From Perognathus longimembris pacificus (taxonomy: Eukaryota > Chordata > Mammalia > Rodentia > Heteromyidae), in the NCBI RefSeq assembly GCF_023159225.1, contig NC_063171.1, forward strand, positions 13,624,326 through 13,688,325: 64,000 nucleotides of DNA, read 5' to 3'. The position numbers and the translations under genes are program-made. Below are positions 19,935 through 64,000 of the stretch, piece by piece. Numbering within the stretch: position 1 is the stretch's first letter; every line of letters starts with the position of its first letter. The notes beneath the pieces were generated by a model that was not told where the DNA came from, did not search any database, and saw nothing but the letters and a program-made list of their open reading frames with translations.

Positions 19935-21680
19935 TTAAAAAAAATTTTCTTATTTATTGTCAAAGTGATGTACAGAGAGGTTATAGCTTCATATGTTAGA
20001 CATTGGATACATTTTACATTTCTTGTACTGTTTATTACCTCCTCCCTCATTCCCCCTCCCCCTCCCCCTTTCCTTCTCCCCCCCATGAGTTGTTCAGTTG
20101 GTTTACACCAAACAGTTTCGCAAGTATTGCTTTTGTAGTTGTTTGTCTTTTTATCCTGTGTCTCTTGATTTTGGTTTTCCCTTTCACTTTCCTAGTTCTA
20201 ATACCAGTATATAAAGTTTCCAATGTACTCAGAAAAGATAGAGTGATAGTGCAAGTACAACCACAGGAAGGGGATACACGAGGATCACATGGCATGTTGA
20301 AAGTAATTACAACAGTTATATATCACTCATTTCCATAACATGGATTTCATTTCACTTAGCATTATCTTATGCATTCATAGGGGCATGGCTATTAGGCTCT
20401 TGTGATCCTCTGCTGTAACTAACGTAAACCTGTGCTAATTATTCCCTATGAGGGAGACCATAGAGTCCATGTTTCTCTGGGTCTGGCTCACTTAGTGTAA
20501 TTTTCTCCAAATCCTTCCATTTCCTTACAAATGGGGCAATGTCATTATTTCTGATAGAGGCATAAAATTCCATTGTGTATATGTACCACATTTTCCTGAT
20601 CCATTTGTCTACTGAGGGGCATCTGGGTTGGTACCATATTTTAGCTATGATAAATTGTGCTGCGATGAGCATTGTTGTGCTGGTGGCTTTAGTGTGTTCT
20701 TGTTTGTGGTCTTTTGGGTAGATTCCGAAAAGTGGGGCTGCTGGGTCATAGGGGAGTTCTATGTTTGCCTTCTGAGGAATCTCCATACTGCTTGCCATAG
20801 TAGCTGAACCAGTTTACATTGCCACCAACAATGAAGTAGGGTTTCCTTTTGGCCACATCCCCTGCAACATTTATTATTGTTAGTTTTCTTGATAAAGGAC
20901 ATTCTTACTGGGATGAGGTGGAATCTCAATGTTGTTTTGATTTTCATTTCTTTTATGACCAGTGTTGTAGAGTACTTTTTCATATGTCTCTTGGCCTTTC
21001 TCATTTTCTCATCAGAGAAGTCTCTTTTTAAGTCCTTAGCCCACTTGTTGAGGGGGCTGTTGGTTCTTTGTGATTTTGTTTTGGAGGAATGTAATTTTTT
21101 TAGTTCTGCATATATTTTAGATATGAGGCCTTTGTCCATTGTGTCACCAGTAAAGATCTTCTCCCAATCTGTGGGCTTTCTGTTTATCTTGTGAGCTATG
21201 TCCTTTGCCCTGCAGAAGCTCTGCAGTTTGATGCAGTCCCATTTGTCCATCCTTTCTTTGATTTGTAGCATTTCTCAATCCTAAGCAGAATGAACAGTGC
21301 TGGAGGAATTACAATACCCAACTTCAAGCTGTATTATAAAGCTATAGTAACTAAAACAGCTTGGTATTGGCACCAGAACAGGCCTGAAGACCAATGGAAC
21401 AGAATTGAAGACCCAGAAATGAACCCACAGAACTATTCCTACTTAATCTTTGAGAAAGCAGCTAAAAAATAGGAAGGAAGAAAGATAGCCTCTTCAACAA
21501 ATGGTCCTGGCAAAACTGGTTCAACACCTGCAACAAACTAAAACTAGATCCGTATATATCACCCTGCACCAAAATCAATTCCAAATGGATCAAAGACCTT
21601 GAAATTAAAACAGATACCCTGAAAATACTAAAGGAAGGAGTAGAAGAAACACTTGGGCTCCTTGGCACAGGATGGAATTT
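19935..21680 (-). mobile_element. Twin-primed (5'-inverted) L1
   Basis: Segment 19935-21276 is minus-strand L1 from the A-tail up into ORF2. Segment 21277-21680 is L1 in the opposite orientation, covering the adjoining upstream part of ORF2. Compared with other copies here, about 15-20 bp are missing at the junction. The TSD is CACTTGCCTTT (19924-19934) and CATTTGCCTTT (21681-21691). Confidence 0.93.
20439..21271 (-). pseudogene. L1 ORF2 C-terminal region, nearly open
   Basis: Two overlapping minus-strand frames cover the ORF2p C-terminus. 20759-21271 (170 codons) runs from MDKWDCIKLQSFCRAKDIAH to the cysteine-histidine motif CGQKETLLHCWWQCK near its end. 20439-20798 (119 codons) continues with MEIPQKANIELPYDPAAPLF, through YTMEFYASIRNNDIAPFVRK, to the end of the protein. 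One frameshift separates them, around 20760-20798. The Cys/His motif is the conserved C-terminal zinc-knuckle-like segment of L1 ORF2p. The sequence has little damage, so this is among the younger L1 copies in the window, but truncation and inversion make it non-functional. Confidence 0.9.
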
Positions 21681-21691
21681 CATTTGCCTTT

Positions 21692-22734
21692 GAAAGCTCC
21701 AGCACCTAGGCTTTAACAAAAGGCAGCTTGTGCTAAAATTTCTGAGTACTGTGTTTTTCTAAACACCTCAGGTAATTCAAATAATCAGTCGAGGTCGAAA
21801 CCAATATCTAAATAATAATAACTAACACAATTTTAAATCTGATTCCACACAGGGTAAATTATTTTTTATTTTTATTAATAATACATGCAGAAAGAAACTG
21901 GAATACATGAAACTTAGAGCTTGAATGTACAAACAAAACAAAAATGTGTTTGATTCTAGCAATTAGGAATGACTCCTTGAAGTACAGCTTAATTAAAGGA
22001 AAATAATTATGTAAATGTGAATTTATTATCATATATGTATGGATTTTCTCAGGAATGTATAACTAAATTCCAATGTATGTTCTGTACAAAGGAACTGTGG
22101 GTATTTAAAGATGACTAACTGTAGTCATCTGAAGAAAGAACAGAAAAAATTATAGCAAAATGTGAAAGATAGTATAGTGTGAACAGAGCCATGCCACCTC
22201 TAGTCCATCACCTTCTAAATGGATGCATAACATAAGTAAAACATAGGAGAAAGAGCCCATGCTTCAGAGAATCAAACAACTGAAATTAAATAAAAACATA
22301 TAGAACACATGGTTTCTTCTCTGAAAAAATTGCAAGTGATTGTCATATAGGATCTTAGATTATTTTATAACCATCTCCAAATTTATGTTTGTTGGCATAT
22401 AATTTTAATTACAATAAAATGCATTCATAAATATCATCTAAATTATGATGTATTGAAATACATACATGTCATTAGAAGTTAGTAACAGGAATTTAATGAT
22501 TGCATCAAGTTGTTTTCTTTTACTATATTGAAATTAAGTCCAACATTTTTGAAGAACTGCTAAAAAATGGGGAGGACTACATTTAGAAGTGAACCGTGAT
22601 TTCTTTGTTTGGATTCTAAAATAAAAAAGAATGTTAATACTTATATGACTGATAGAAAGTGATTTTGTATAGAGCACTATAGAGGAACTAAAACAAGTCA
22701 ATGTATTTCTATACTAATAAAGGGACATTTTGTA
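21692..22734. other. Intronic stretch, nothing recognised
   Basis: AT-rich, no gene or repeat named. Confidence 0.45.
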
Positions 22735-38326: not shown

Positions 38327-38359
<33 letters not shown>

Positions 38360-38548
38360 CAGTCCTGGGCCTTGGACTCAGGGCCTGAGCACTATCCCTG
38401 GCTTCTTCCCGCTCAAGGCTAGCACTCTGCCACTTGAGCCACAGCGCCGCTTCTGGCCGTTTTCTGTATATGTGGTGCTGGGGAATCGAACCTAGGGCCT
38501 CGTGTATCCGAGGCAGGCACTCTTGCCACTAGGCTATATCCCCAGCCC
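38327..38548 (-). mobile_element. ID-dimer SINE, very young subfamily
   Basis: A reversed A-tail and intact monomers. The TSD ACTAAATAACTTCT is exact at 38313-38326 and 38549-38562. The body differs from the copy at 43550-43759 at about two positions. Confidence 0.96.
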
Positions 38549-43268: not shown

Positions 43269-43549
43269 GTATGTAGGTAAAATTTTACTAATTCTCTATG
43301 AGACTGTGGGGGTATATTATCTAGTTTAGATATATATTTTAATAAGCACATATATAGTAATAGTTTCTAAAAACATAAATGCTCACTTCATAATGCAGAA
43401 TGATGAATTTGAGACCACATTGAGAAAGTGTTCAAATTTACTTTTATTTTCCAAATTAAATAACAGAAATTGAAAAAAATAAATTGACAATGTATTTCTC
43501 ACATGTTAATTATTGTCTCAGTAAACACCAATTATGAATAGGCTTTCTT

Positions 43550-43759
43550 TCTTTTTTTTTTTTTTTTGGCCAGTCCTGGGCCTTGGACTCAGGGCCTGAG
43601 CACTGTCCCTGGCTTCTTCCCGCTCAAGGCTAGCACTCTGCCACTTGAGCCACAGCGCCGCTTCTGGCCGTTTTCTGTTTATGTGGTGCTGGGGAATCGA
43701 ACCTAGGGCCTCGTGTATCCGAGGCAGGCACTCTTGCCACTAGGCTATATCCCCAGCCC
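43550..43759 (-). mobile_element. ID-dimer SINE, very young subfamily
   Basis: It lies 280 bp downstream of the 106-bp BRINP3 exon, antisense. The exact 15-bp TSD TGAATAGGCTTTCTT is at 43535-43549 and 43760-43774. It is nearly identical to the copy at 38327-38548. Confidence 0.97.
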
Positions 43760-59374: not shown

Positions 59375-59592
59375 TTTTTTTTTTTTTTTTATTTGTTTGT
59401 TTTGCCAGTCCTTTGGCTTGGACTCAAGGCCTGAGCATGATCCCTGGCTTCTTTTTGCTCAGGGCTAGGATTCTACCACTTGAGCCACAGTGCCACTTCT
59501 GGCTTTTTCTATATATGTAGTGCTCGGGAATCAAACCCAGGGCTTCATGCATGCGAGGCAAGTACTCTAACACTAGGCCATATTCCCAGCCC
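59375..59592 (-). mobile_element. ID-dimer SINE nested in L1
   Basis: T-rich tail, GCCAGTCCTTTGGCTTGGAC and the ID monomer ending CATATTCCCAGCCC. L1 sequence lies on both sides. The TSD is not clear. Confidence 0.9.
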
Positions 59593-59706
59593 ATGATTAC
59601 AACTAGTTACCTCCTTCCTCATTTCTCCCCCCTCTCCCCTCCCACCACCTCCTCATGAGTTGTACAGTTGGTTTACACCAAATGGTTTTGTATTGCTTTT
59701 GGAATG

Positions 59707-60164
59707 TGTCGGGGTTTTTTAGCACACCCCCCCCCCCGTGCTCCCCTGACCCACGGGAGTGATGGGGAAGGCTCGCCCCACCCCGACCAGACAAGCCAAG
59801 AAAGGAAAGGGTGGGCAGACCGCCTGCATCCAGCCCTCCCTCACAGGAGGACAAACAGACATGTCTGGGAGTCAAGTCAGCAAGTCTGCGCAAGATCTGG
59901 TTTATTGGGGAAGTACGTGCCACTAATATAAAGCATAGGAGCCAATCAGGTCTAAGGTCGGCAGGAAGGGGAGTCATGAGCTGTCCATCAAGGTTGGAAG
60001 AGCTGGGTGGGGGGCATCACAGCCCACAGAACTGCCTCTGGGTCATAACCAAAGACACTTGTAGCAGCTGCATGTTGTTGTTAGGCACTGCCATCTTAGC
60101 CACATGTGGCCCCAAGACTGAGAAACAGGTGGGGCCAGCTAGTTGACTTCCAGGTGTGCCCACA
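59707..60164 (-). mobile_element. Solo LTR of an endogenous retrovirus, 458 bp
   Basis: Bounded by the exact 6-bp TSD GGAATG (59701-59706 and 60165-60170), with L1 sequence continuing across the site. On the minus strand it starts TGTGGGCACACC and ends CCCCGACA, with AATAAA (TTTATT at 59901-59906 on +) and a TATA-like TTTATATT just upstream (59925-59933). A 6-bp TSD is typical of class II (ERVK-like) elements. No internal region remains. Confidence 0.94.
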
Positions 60165-60401
60165 GGAATGGTTTGTCTTTTTATCATTTGTCTCTTGATT
60201 TTGATATTCCCTTTCCCTTCCTTAGTTCTAATGCCTGCATATACAGTATCCAGGGTACTGAGATGAGATACAGTGAAAGCAGGTTGGGAATTTTTCTCTT
60301 GGCATATAGAAATAGTAATTAAAATATTTATATCTTGCAAATATGATGAATTTGTTTATCTATACTGACAGTAGTTTGGGAGATCATATTGATCATGTTG
60401 A

Positions 60402-60610
60402 CTAGATATGATGGCTGTGACTATAACCCTGACTACTTGAGAAGTAAAGGTCAAGAGGATTCTGCTTTGATCCTAAAATGGTTGTCCAGAGAATCCTGCT
60501 TTTAGGCAGGTAAGGACAAAAATATAATGAGAACTCTCATTTAGGAATAGTGATATGTATTAATGGTCTTAGCTTAGGTGAATAAAGTGCTGACCAACTC
60601 TGTGTAAACA
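60402..60610 (+). repeat. B1-dID SINE, diverged
   Basis: TATGATGGCTGTGACTATAA, GACTACTTGAGAAGTAAAGG and a dID-like end (GTCTTAGCTTAGGTGAATAA). The tail is CAAA-rich (60607-60622). Confidence 0.65.
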
Positions 60611-61009
60611 AACAAACAAATCTGAAGTCTAACATTTAACTTACAAGCAAAAGGTACTGGAGAAATGACTTAGTCAATACAAGACTGTGAAATCAAGCCT
60701 TAATTTGTTGTTGTTGTTTGTCTTGTTTATTTTTTGTGTACATATATTCAATACATTCAGTGATAACTTCCCCATTTCTAATTTGGAAAATCAGTATTGC
60801 TTTTTCTTGCCTGAGCTCTCTGGCTAGAATTTTCAGTGCTGAGGCCTATCTTTATTTTGTTTCATATCTATGATAGAAATCCTTCAAATTTTCTCCATTT
60901 AGTTTAAATGTTGACCTTTATATATAGCCTATATTACAATGATGTACTTCCTTTCCATATCTAATTTGTTTAGCATTATTACAAAAATATATTAAATTTA
61001 TCAAATGTA

Positions 61010-61195
61010 TTGTCTGCATCTATTAAAATATGGCATTTTATTTGTCCATCTTTTGATGTTTTATATCATAAATAACAACTGATGGTGCTTTGAAAATTAG
61101 ATATTCACATACAGAGAATGAATCTAGTTCTTATCTCATGAGTTATGAAAGTCAAAAAAATTAGAGCCATAATATAAGACTGGAAATGATAGAAC
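61010..61195 (+). repeat. 186-bp exact direct duplication, copy 1
   Basis: Base-by-base identical to 62345-62530 (offset 1335). It sits in otherwise unremarkable intronic sequence and begins TTGTCTGCATC and ends GATAGAAC. Confidence 0.97.
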
Positions 61196-61316
61196 ACTGA
61201 ATTATAATAGGAGACATGCTCCAGGATATGGGAAAATATGTTTTGACAATACTATCTAAGTACTCATAGTAAGTGGAAAAGTAGACTAATTGTTACACCC
61301 AGCTGAATAATAACTT

Positions 61317-61445
61317 CTTCTGGGTGTTGTGTTACATGATGGACATAGCTATTCAAATGTACCAGGTAGGAAAATCACAATTCAAGGCCAGTCAGGACAA
61401 ACTTACTAAGAGTCTCTATCTGTAAGACAAGTTAAAGGCAAAATG
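61317..61445 (+). repeat. B1-like SINE remnant
   Basis: GTGTTGTGTTACATGATGG, then AATCACAATTCAAGGCCAGT and GAGTCTCTATCTGTAAGAC follow the 7SL-SINE layout. Confidence 0.55.
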
Positions 61446-61902
61446 ACGAAATATGTGGTTAAGGAAAGTTGAAGACACTAATATCAATATCTAGTTTCAT
61501 ATAAGAAAACAAAAACATAAACTTTTGCATAATTAAGGAAGCAATCAGCATAGTAGAAACCACACAGAAGAATTTATAAGCTATACATATGAACAGGAGT
61601 CATCTTCCAAAATATAAAAGAAATATAGGAAAGTCAAAATGAAAATATATCTGATTTTGTGATGAGTAATGTATTTCAAAAGAAGACATACAATTGAGCA
61701 ACAAGAACTCAACACTGATGATCATCAAAGGGATGCACTGTAAAAGCATCACACATACACATATTCTGGCTGTGATAAGATTGGCTGCTATCACAAAGAT
61801 AAAAACTAGAAGTGAGGAAAGGCAATTCTCACTCACTGTCAGGAGTGAAAACTTGTAAAGCCATTGTGGAAATGGTATTAAGAACAGAACTGCCACTTGC
61901 CA

Positions 61903-62088
61903 CCTGTGGTGGCTCATGCTAGTAATCCCATCTACTCAAAAGGCTGAGATATGAGGATCACAGTTCAAAGCCAGAAAAATTAACTTCCAGAATAACCTGG
62001 AAGTAGAGCTGTAGTTCAAGTGATAGAGCACTAGGTTTTGCAAACAATGCCTAGAGGACAGTACTCAGACCCTGAGTTCAAGCTCAGG

Positions 62089-62090
<2 letters not shown>
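61903..62090 (+). repeat. B1-dID SINE with CA tail
   Basis: GTGGTGGCTCATGCTAGTAA, GGCTGAGATATGAGGATCAC, a shortened linker, and the dID half (GTAGTTCAAGTGATAGAGCA to GAGTTCAAGCTCAGG). Confidence 0.85.

Positions 62091-62140
<50 letters not shown>
62091..62140 (+). repeat. (CA)n microsatellite at a SINE tail
   Basis: 25 uninterrupted AC units, directly replacing the A-tail of the SINE. Confidence 0.96.
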
Positions 62141-62143
<3 letters not shown>

Positions 62144-62344
62144 CTGTCATCCTTCTACTGCATATAGGTCCAAAGGAAATAAAATCAGTATGTTCTAGAG
62201 TTATCTGCACACCTATGACCATTTTTTATCACATTATTATTCACAGTATCCAAAGAATGGAAATAACATCCATGCATTGAAACAACATGGTACTCCTATG
62301 TAACATATACTTTCACCCATGTAAGAGAGTGAAATCTTATTTTT

Positions 62345-62530
62345 TTGTCTGCATCTATTAAAATATGGCATTTTATTTGTCCATCTTTTGATGTTTTATA
62401 TCATAAATAACAACTGATGGTGCTTTGAAAATTAGATATTCACATACAGAGAATGAATCTAGTTCTTATCTCATGAGTTATGAAAGTCAAAAAAATTAGA
62501 GCCATAATATAAGACTGGAAATGATAGAAC
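62345..62530 (+). repeat. 186-bp exact direct duplication, copy 2
   Basis: Identical to 61010-61195. It runs without a gap into a SINE fragment at 62531. Confidence 0.97.
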
Positions 62531-62672
62531 TGGGAATATAGCTTAGTGGTAGAGTGCTTGCCTCGCATACATGAAGCCCTGGGTTCGATTACTAAGCACC
62601 ACAAATATAGAAAAAGCCAGAAGTGGCGCTCTGGCTCAAGAGGTAGAGTGTTAGCCTTGGGCAAAAAGAAGC
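62531..62672 (+). mobile_element. ID-dimer SINE fragment lacking both ends
   Basis: It starts TGGGAATATAGCTTAGTGGT, missing the first few bases of the monomer. It stops after GGGCAAAAAGAAGC, before the last third of the second monomer and the tail. The left edge abuts the duplicated 186 bp. Confidence 0.9.
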
Positions 62673-64000
62673 TATACAATTTATTGATTTACTTAAGATG
62701 TGAAACAATAATTCAACTACACTAATAGAATAATCAAATAATAATTTAACTACTGCTATAGAATAATCAAGGGAAATTTTATTCAAGCTATGCCAATAAT
62801 GAAAATCTTTCAATAACAGAAATTGATATGACTTGAATTCTATTGAGAAGGCTGTCAGATTTTAAATGAGGTGGAAAATAAAGGAAGGTGATCGAGGATG
62901 TTAGTTGGGGATTATGATAAATATTATTAGGCATTCCTCCGGTGCTGGTTGTCTACTATTAAAAGTAGACTCTTGGGCTTTCCCGAAGACTGGAAAGATT
63001 TGATGTTATTTCCTTCAATAATCATATTCCATTCATATGCCACACCCTTCAGAAACATTGTCTGGTTCATGCAGATTCTAACTGAAAGGACAAAGTATTT
63101 GTTTGAATATAATATTAAATAAAAATATTTGCAAATATTCTAAAGTAAATCTGCTAAACCAAAGGAAGTGAGTTTAGTCTATCTGAGGTATACTTTGGAA
63201 TCTTGGGAAACATCCCATAATATTGCCTCAAGGACATTTGAAAAACAATACACTATTTTAGTAAGCAAATTTCACCTATCAGCTTGGATGAATGAAGGAA
63301 TAAAGAACCTGAATATCAGTAAAGCTGAGGAATTTTATCAAAAACTTAGCACAATCAACTAAATTAAAATATATACATTGAACCAAATATGTATTTAAAA
63401 TATATTTCCCAAATGTTCTTGCGATATGAACCTGATATTTCCAGTTGCTGATCTATAAAAGATGGCATAATTTGCTAATATTAAAATTATTTTGAATAGG
63501 CTTTCTGATCAGTGTAAATCAAGGTTCAATAAATAATTTGAAGGTAGGAAATGCTGTTGGCTCAAAATTAAATGGCAGACATTCAAGGAAAGTTAGAGAA
63601 GAAATACTAAGTGATGCAACAACTTGAAACCTATGAAATCTCACACAATAAGAACAGCAGAGAAAATGATTCCTATTCATAAAAATAATATTTTGCATAA
63701 CTATTTATTTGTTTTCAGCTAGAGATGGAACTAGTGTCTCCCACTTGCTAGGCAAGCATTCTGTCACTGACATACACCTGTACCTCTTATTTTATGCTGG
63801 TTATTTTTGAGAAAGTGTCTTAATTCCACCCAGGTGCATGCCTACACACATATTTTCCAGGTTCTCAGTGAAGATGAGATACAAACCATATGTTCTAGGA
63901 TCCTCTCTTAAGAATATCTTCTTTTGTTCTCACCGTGTGAATGCTTAGAGTGCTGTTTAATTAATCATGCCCAAGTGTAATTATTTATAGGAACATTCTA
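62673..64000. other. Intronic stretch with a short tandem repeat
   Basis: A diverged tandem duplication of about 32 bp lies at 62707-62770 (shared end TAGAATAATCAA). Otherwise no gene is recognised. A + frame at 63168-63362 lacks splice context and family resemblance. Confidence 0.5.
63718..63860 (-). repeat. Degenerate ID/B1-type SINE remnant
   Basis: CTTGCTAGGCAAGCATTCTG and CACTGACATACACCTGTACC resemble a reversed ID monomer. GAGAAAGTGTCTTAATTCC resembles a reversed B1 edge. Confidence 0.5.

What the first reader, a model, noticed from the sequence alone, without database searches (positions are those of the whole stretch)
61010..62530. Exact 186-bp direct duplication, 1,335 bp apart, second copy fused to a SINE fragment
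61010-61195 and 62345-62530 are identical at every base in a region where other repeats have clearly diverged. The second copy continues directly into an ID-dimer fragment that lacks its first bases, the end of its second monomer and any A-tail (62531-62672), and I see no TSD. The 328-bp composite therefore does not look like a normal SINE insertion. Candidate mechanisms are template switching during repair (microhomology-mediated), or a reverse-transcription chimera. An assembly artefact is the alternative.
Basis: partly seen in the sequence, partly recalled or inferred. Interest (0 to 1): 0.75.

Follow-up and report, generated by a model that had tools for sequence, protein, structure and literature searches.

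The report
Small local copy-paste repair scar
A 186-letter stretch of old, decayed jumping-gene DNA has been copied exactly, 1.3 kb downstream, and joined to an old broken SINE, most likely by a slip of the DNA copying or repair machinery; this is an ordinary kind of mutation scar, though a clear and recent example.

Summary
In detail: 61010-61195 and 62345-62530 match at all 186 bases and at none beyond. Copy 1 looks like the source. A decayed antisense LINE-1 ORF2 reverse-transcriptase stretch runs unbroken through its left edge; the part outside the repeat scores better than 2,676 of 2,676 control placements with one L1 reference and 2,673 of 2,676 with the other. In copy 2 the same bases abut remnants of a different, sense-oriented part of L1. 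The duplication is young (0/186 differences). The attached ID-dimer fragment is old (16/142 from the old-type consensus, 9 private differences), so it was not reverse-transcribed from a fresh SINE transcript together with the repeat. No target-site duplication or A-tail is found; the same search finds duplications of 12-15 bp around 5 of 11 other IDs in the window. Best account: serial template switching or DNA-templated break repair. Synthesis jumped back 1,335 bp, copied 186 bp, then landed just inside an old ID. An assembly artefact is not excluded: the own-genome search did not complete 12 of 12 times. A new instance of a known kind of mutation; low interest.

The parts
61010..61195 (+). 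Copy 1 of the 186-bp direct repeat, the probable source
   Evidence: 186/186 identical to 62345-62530; antisense L1 ORF2 runs through its left edge
62345..62530 (+). Copy 2 of the repeat, the probable derived copy
   Evidence: 186/186 identical to copy 1; flanked by sense L1 C-terminal remnants on the left and an ID fragment on the right
62531..62672 (+). Old ID-dimer SINE fragment lacking the leading G's, the last ~44 nt and the A-tail
   Evidence: 79-87% to 11 other near-complete window copies; 16/142 from the old-type and 18/142 from the young-type consensus, 9 private differences
60765..61070 (-). Decayed antisense LINE-1 ORF2 reverse-transcriptase stretch, crossing the left edge of copy 1
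   Evidence: 0 of 1,616 control placements score as well for either of two L1 references; outside part alone 0 and 3 of 2,676, inside part alone 4 and 30 of 2,702; RT profile hit 60902-60765, equalled or beaten by 2 of 100 shuffles
61676..62344 (+). Decayed sense LINE-1 ORF2 C-terminal remnants (interrupted by an ID-like SINE and a CA tract), up to the left joint of copy 2
   Evidence: Profile hits 61676-61801 and 62146-62253, each above 100 of 100 shuffles, and a weak colinear hit 62219-62317; nucleotide support mixed; last ~27 nt placed by alignment only
62340..62349 (+). Left joint of copy 2: T7 run and shared TTG/TTGT
   Evidence: 2 of 3 aligned L1 copies read TTTGTAAGG here, the third TTGCAGG; the microhomology is inferred

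Best explanation
A recent microhomology-assisted template-switch event (replication slippage or DNA-templated break repair). Nascent DNA passing along the sense L1 remnant stopped near 62344 and re-primed 1,335 bp upstream at 61010 on a short shared word. It copied 186 bp, then switched again at 61195 into an old ID SINE just past its leading G's, and went on from there. Simplest version: the ID was already the downstream neighbour, so two switches suffice and the net change is a 186-bp locally templated insertion with loss of whatever lay between the L1 remnant and the ID. Shown: exact identity, L1 continuity through the left edge of copy 1, ID older than the duplication, no TSD or tail. Inferred: direction of synthesis, microhomology at the left joint, the deletion, and that the ID was resident.
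For: 186/186 identity with sharp ends, same orientation, 1,335 bp apart. L1 alignment continuous through base 61010 in copy 1. Likely 3-4 bp shared word at the left joint and one shared C at the right joint. ID fragment far more diverged than the repeat copies: 9 private changes of 142 against 0 of 186; equal age would predict about 24 differences between the copies, chance of none about 6e-11. No TSD, whereas 5 of 11 other IDs show 12-15 bp duplications in the same search (0 of 500 random pairs reach 12 bp). Serial replication slippage makes small complex rearrangements between closely adjacent sites (PMC2583991, passages).
Against: L1 continuity at the right edge of copy 1 is not demonstrated: middle-ORF2 alignments of 61076-61290 are equalled by 206 to 413 of 1,646 controls, and a nucleotide profile finds nothing there. 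The left microhomology rests on other L1 copies, and the right joint shares only 1 bp. Why the ID lacks its 3' end is not explained by the two-switch version; it needs an older or third event. Loss of the L1 3' end is not proven: searches right of 62672 are negative, but the same alignment test also fails on parts that the profiles call L1. No reads or relatives were seen.
Confidence: 0.55

Rival explanations
1. A double-strand break in the L1 remnant was patched with a two-piece composite of 328 bp: 186 bp copied from 1.3 kb upstream plus 142 bp copied from an old ID elsewhere. Three joints; the template may be DNA or a transcript.
For: Both ends of the ID part are abrupt, with no tail or TSD. 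Patches of 73-414 bp, median 191 bp, with end-joining features were recovered at induced breaks (PMC5110952 section 4).
Against: Needs a third joint and a second template. No donor ID was found in the window: the nearest copy is 86.6% identical. In that paper the templates were distant, not local.
Confidence: 0.2
2. Assembly artefact: a chimeric read or misjoin made the second copy.
For: Zero differences over 186 bp. No reads, second assembly or own-genome search were available (12 of 12 requests unanswered).
Against: The copy is short, is joined to different sequence on each side, and leads into a further 1.3 kb of sequence (62673-64000) without N. A collapsed or doubled haplotype would rather repeat a longer stretch (inference).
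Confidence: 0.13
3. Reverse-transcription chimera inserted by the L1 machinery: either an ID transcript fused with a transcript of the 186 bp, or a minus-strand transcript whose A-tail is the T7 at 62340-62346.
For: A T7 run stands at the left joint. L1-mediated fusions with other RNAs, Alu included, are documented (PMC13174262, abstract and passages).
Against: No TSD although the event is young and one should be intact. Two of the seven T's are template bases. The ID part is old. In the published chimeras the Alu part is typically full-length and sense, with TSD and tail as hallmarks (passages).
Confidence: 0.07
4. An older duplication recently made identical again by gene conversion.
For: Would also give zero differences beside an old ID fragment.
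Against: Needs a conversion tract covering all 186 bp of a short repeat up to both joints; an extra event (inference).
Confidence: 0.05

Closest known systems
Serial replication slippage / FoSTeS / MMBIR rearrangements (PMC2583991, passages; MMBIR paper PMC2621351, search listing only)
   Same: Short segment copied from a nearby site, same orientation, joined to a further discontinuous segment, little or no homology at the joints.
   Different: Only 1 bp is visibly shared at the right joint (2-5 bp reported at FoSTeS joints); the left microhomology is inferred; the parent allele is unknown.
Class 2 templated sequence insertions (PMC5110952, abstract and sections 4 and 9)
   Same: No TSD, no poly(A), insert of similar size (186 or 328 bp against 73-414 bp).
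   Different: There the templates lie in distant regions; here at least 186 bp come from 1.3 kb away.
L1-mediated chimeric insertions such as Alu/L1 (PMC13174262, abstract and passages)
   Same: L1-derived and SINE-derived sequence fused.
   Different: No TSD or tail; the L1 piece is an exact copy of a decayed local remnant and the SINE piece is old and truncated.

Membership tests
Serial replication slippage / FoSTeS / MMBIR event | Inserted segment templated from a nearby site | tested here: met
   186/186, 1,335 bp apart, same orientation; source side supported by L1 continuity at one edge
Serial replication slippage / FoSTeS / MMBIR event | Microhomology at the joints | tested here: inconclusive
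   Left: TTG or TTGT inferred from three L1 copies; right: one C
Serial replication slippage / FoSTeS / MMBIR event | Parent allele without the insert | not testable with these tools
   No relative or second haplotype reached; the genome search unanswered 12 of 12 times
Class 2 templated sequence insertion | No TSD, no poly(A), end-joining type joints | tested here: met
Class 2 templated sequence insertion | Template from a distant genomic region | tested here: not met
   The 186 bp match a place 1.3 kb away; the source of the ID part is unknown
SINE insertion by L1 (target-primed reverse transcription) | Flanking target-site duplication | tested here: not met
   4-5 bp shared words, chance level; same search finds 12-15 bp at 5 of 11 control IDs
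SINE insertion by L1 (target-primed reverse transcription) | 3' A-tail | tested here: not met
   Element stops at GAAGC and is followed by TATACAATTT
ID-dimer SINE (sequence family of 62531-62672) | Homology to the two-monomer ID copies of the window | tested here: met
   142 bp align to 11 near-complete copies at 79-87%; fragment only; the family name is recalled, no library named it

The most novel reading that the evidence does not exclude
A germline break repaired from RNA: an L1-type reverse transcriptase copied a transcript of this locus in cis and then a second transcript bearing an old ID copy, leaving a two-template patch without tail or target-site duplication in a rodent.
Probability: 0.06. 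Interest if true: 0.45.

Novelty: new member of a known kind. Interest (0 to 1): 0.17.

Why it matters
It is a clean, recent example of a locally templated insertion whose order of events can be read from one genome: an undiverged copy beside an old SINE and an old L1. If confirmed by reads it adds a case outside human disease loci; it changes no general view.

Tried and rejected
Normal SINE insertion: rejected (no TSD, no tail). Simple tandem duplication: the copies are 1.15 kb apart, so it would need a second, deleting event. Independent L1 insertion as origin of copy 2: unlikely, since copy 2 equals a decayed local sequence at every base.

Rfam scan of the window at gathering scores: 0 matches. 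Searches with translations of the decayed L1 pieces against the PDB (nothing convincing, best E 0.36 and 0.73) and Pfam (0 families for 5 of 5 queries) failed. Better preserved L1 ORFs elsewhere in the window, four ORFs from three copies, matched human LINE-1 ORF2p; a fourth copy was used on its 81% match to one of these. tblastx and alignments with permissive scoring were uninformative; tblastn gave two weak hits. One search returned nothing because of an option clash (seen) and was repeated in corrected form. A nucleotide profile of the ORF2 middle found no match in copy 1 or just right of it (its single hit, E 7, lies at 61341-61354). My reading by eye that sense L1 begins inside copy 1 near 61083, which would make copy 1 span a 5'-inversion joint, therefore stays unproven. 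A paper search that included IDL-Geo, a SINE name I recall, gave one paper without that name.

Full report
OBSERVATION. The two stretches are identical at 186 of 186 bases, and the identity stops exactly at both ends. A repeat search of 59500-64000 finds the same pair. Simple-sequence words left out, the next longest exact direct repeat of the 64-kb window is 84 bp, so this is not chance. The window has no N and 34.8% G+C. Near-identical repeats of another sort do occur: two ID dimers at 38337-38548 and 43548-43759 match at 208 of 212 positions, but they are normal insertions with target-site duplications of 14-15 bp and A-tails.

WHAT THE REPEAT IS MADE OF. On the minus strand, from about 61070 down to 60765, lies a decayed LINE-1 ORF2 reverse-transcriptase stretch. 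As references I used better preserved L1 copies of the same window; four of their ORFs, from three copies, match human LINE-1 ORF2p chains with E from 6.3e-31 to 2.5e-62. Aligned to two copies, 61082-60700 scores 193 and 158, and 0 of 1,616 control placements do as well in either case. The alignment runs through base 61010 without a break. The part outside the repeat alone is equalled by 0 of 2,676 and 3 of 2,676 controls; the part inside alone is weaker (4 and 30 of 2,702). The translated RT profile has its best hit in the 4 kb at 60902-60765, equalled or beaten by 2 of 100 shuffles.

On the plus strand, profiles of the ORF2 C-terminus have their best hits at 61676-61801 and 62146-62253, each above 100 of 100 shuffles, with a weak colinear third hit at 62219-62317. 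Nucleotide support is mixed: E 0.0032 and 0.0087 for the best single-copy profiles, but the direct alignments are equalled by 36 to 354 of 1,638 controls for the first part and by 10 to 734 of 1,646 for the second. Those controls include other L1 copies of the window. The ORF2 middle, which I expected just inside and right of copy 1, is not shown: 206 to 413 of 1,646 controls do as well, its profile hit (5 of 100 shuffles) lies at 61226-61300 with only profile positions 7-29, and the nucleotide profile is negative. So copy 1 sits in continuous L1 at its left edge. Copy 2 begins abruptly, antisense RT sequence against sense C-terminal remnants. That makes copy 1 the probable source. Continuity at the right edge of copy 1 is not proven.

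THE SINE PART. 62531-62672 aligns with 11 other near-complete ID copies of the window. It lacks the 3-4 leading G's and stops at GAAGC, about 44 nt before the tail in a complete copy. It differs from the consensus of four old-type copies at 16 of 142 positions, from that of seven young-type copies at 18 of 142, and at 9 positions from both. The old consensus rests on four copies, so some of the 9 may be subfamily variants. All 12 copies compared, the fragment included, lie at least 2.8% from the consensus of their own type. The two 186-bp copies differ by 0%, 95% upper limit 1.6%. If a consensus-like SINE and the repeat had arrived together, the 9 private changes would predict about 24 differences between the repeat copies; the chance of none is about 6e-11. 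The ID sequence had therefore aged before the duplication, unless gene conversion has reset the repeat.

JOINTS. Left: two of three aligned L1 copies read TTTGTAAGG where the locus passes into TTGTCTGC; the third reads TTGCAGG. A shared TTG or TTGT is likely but inferred. Right: the C at 62530 fits both the repeat and the ID. At the ID's 3' end one T may be shared. Target-site duplication: 4-5 bp shared words, reached by 42-84% of 1,000 random pairs, and 6 bp with longer flanks. As a positive control the same search gives 12-15 bp at 5 of 11 other IDs, 9 bp at a sixth, and 5-7 bp at the other five; of 500 random pairs 0 reach 12 bp and 7 reach 9 bp. The T7 at the left joint contains two template bases and is no convincing tail.

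MECHANISM. If the ID was the resident neighbour, two template switches suffice: back by 1,335 bp, then forward into the ID. That is serial replication slippage as reviewed in PMC2583991 (passages seen), or its FoSTeS/MMBIR relatives (PMC2621351 seen only as a listing). If the ID was not resident, the event is a two-template patch resembling class 2 templated insertions (PMC5110952, abstract and sections 4 and 9), though those have distant templates. I found no L1 3' end right of 62672, which suggests a deletion; the test is weak for L1 as decayed as this. A reverse-transcription chimera is disfavoured by the missing duplication and tail and by the age contrast; published L1 chimeras were seen in PMC13174262 (abstract and passages). 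A (CA)25 tract at 62091-62140 and an inverted ID pair, 59500-59589 with 62530-62619, 88% complementary, lie near the joints and might have stalled a fork; that is speculation.

LIMITS. No reads, relatives or population data were seen, so an artefact is not excluded. The species was not identified. Whether the place is an intron was not tested.

VERDICT.

Noticed in passing
38337-38548 and 43548-43759: Two minus-strand ID dimers 208/212 identical without gaps, each with a target-site duplication of 14-15 bp: young normal insertions, used as a control.
   Followed up: yes
20100-21700: An L1 copy whose first ~425 bases are inverted relative to the rest, the usual look of a 5'-inverted (twin-primed) LINE-1.
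   Followed up: partly
60150-60338, minus strand: Match to sequence downstream of ORF2 in the 20-kb L1 copy (E 6.1e-19), probably an L1 3' UTR remnant; its relation to the antisense RT stretch at 60765-61070 is unclear.
   Followed up: no
62703-62770: Two-copy 33-bp tandem repeat, 82-86% alike, 30 bp right of the ID fragment.
   Followed up: no
62091-62140: Perfect (AC)25 tract between the two 186-bp copies, following an ID-like SINE.
   Followed up: no
59500-59589 and 62530-62619: Inverted ID pair, 88% complementary, 2,940 nt apart, one arm beginning at the right joint of copy 2.
   Followed up: no
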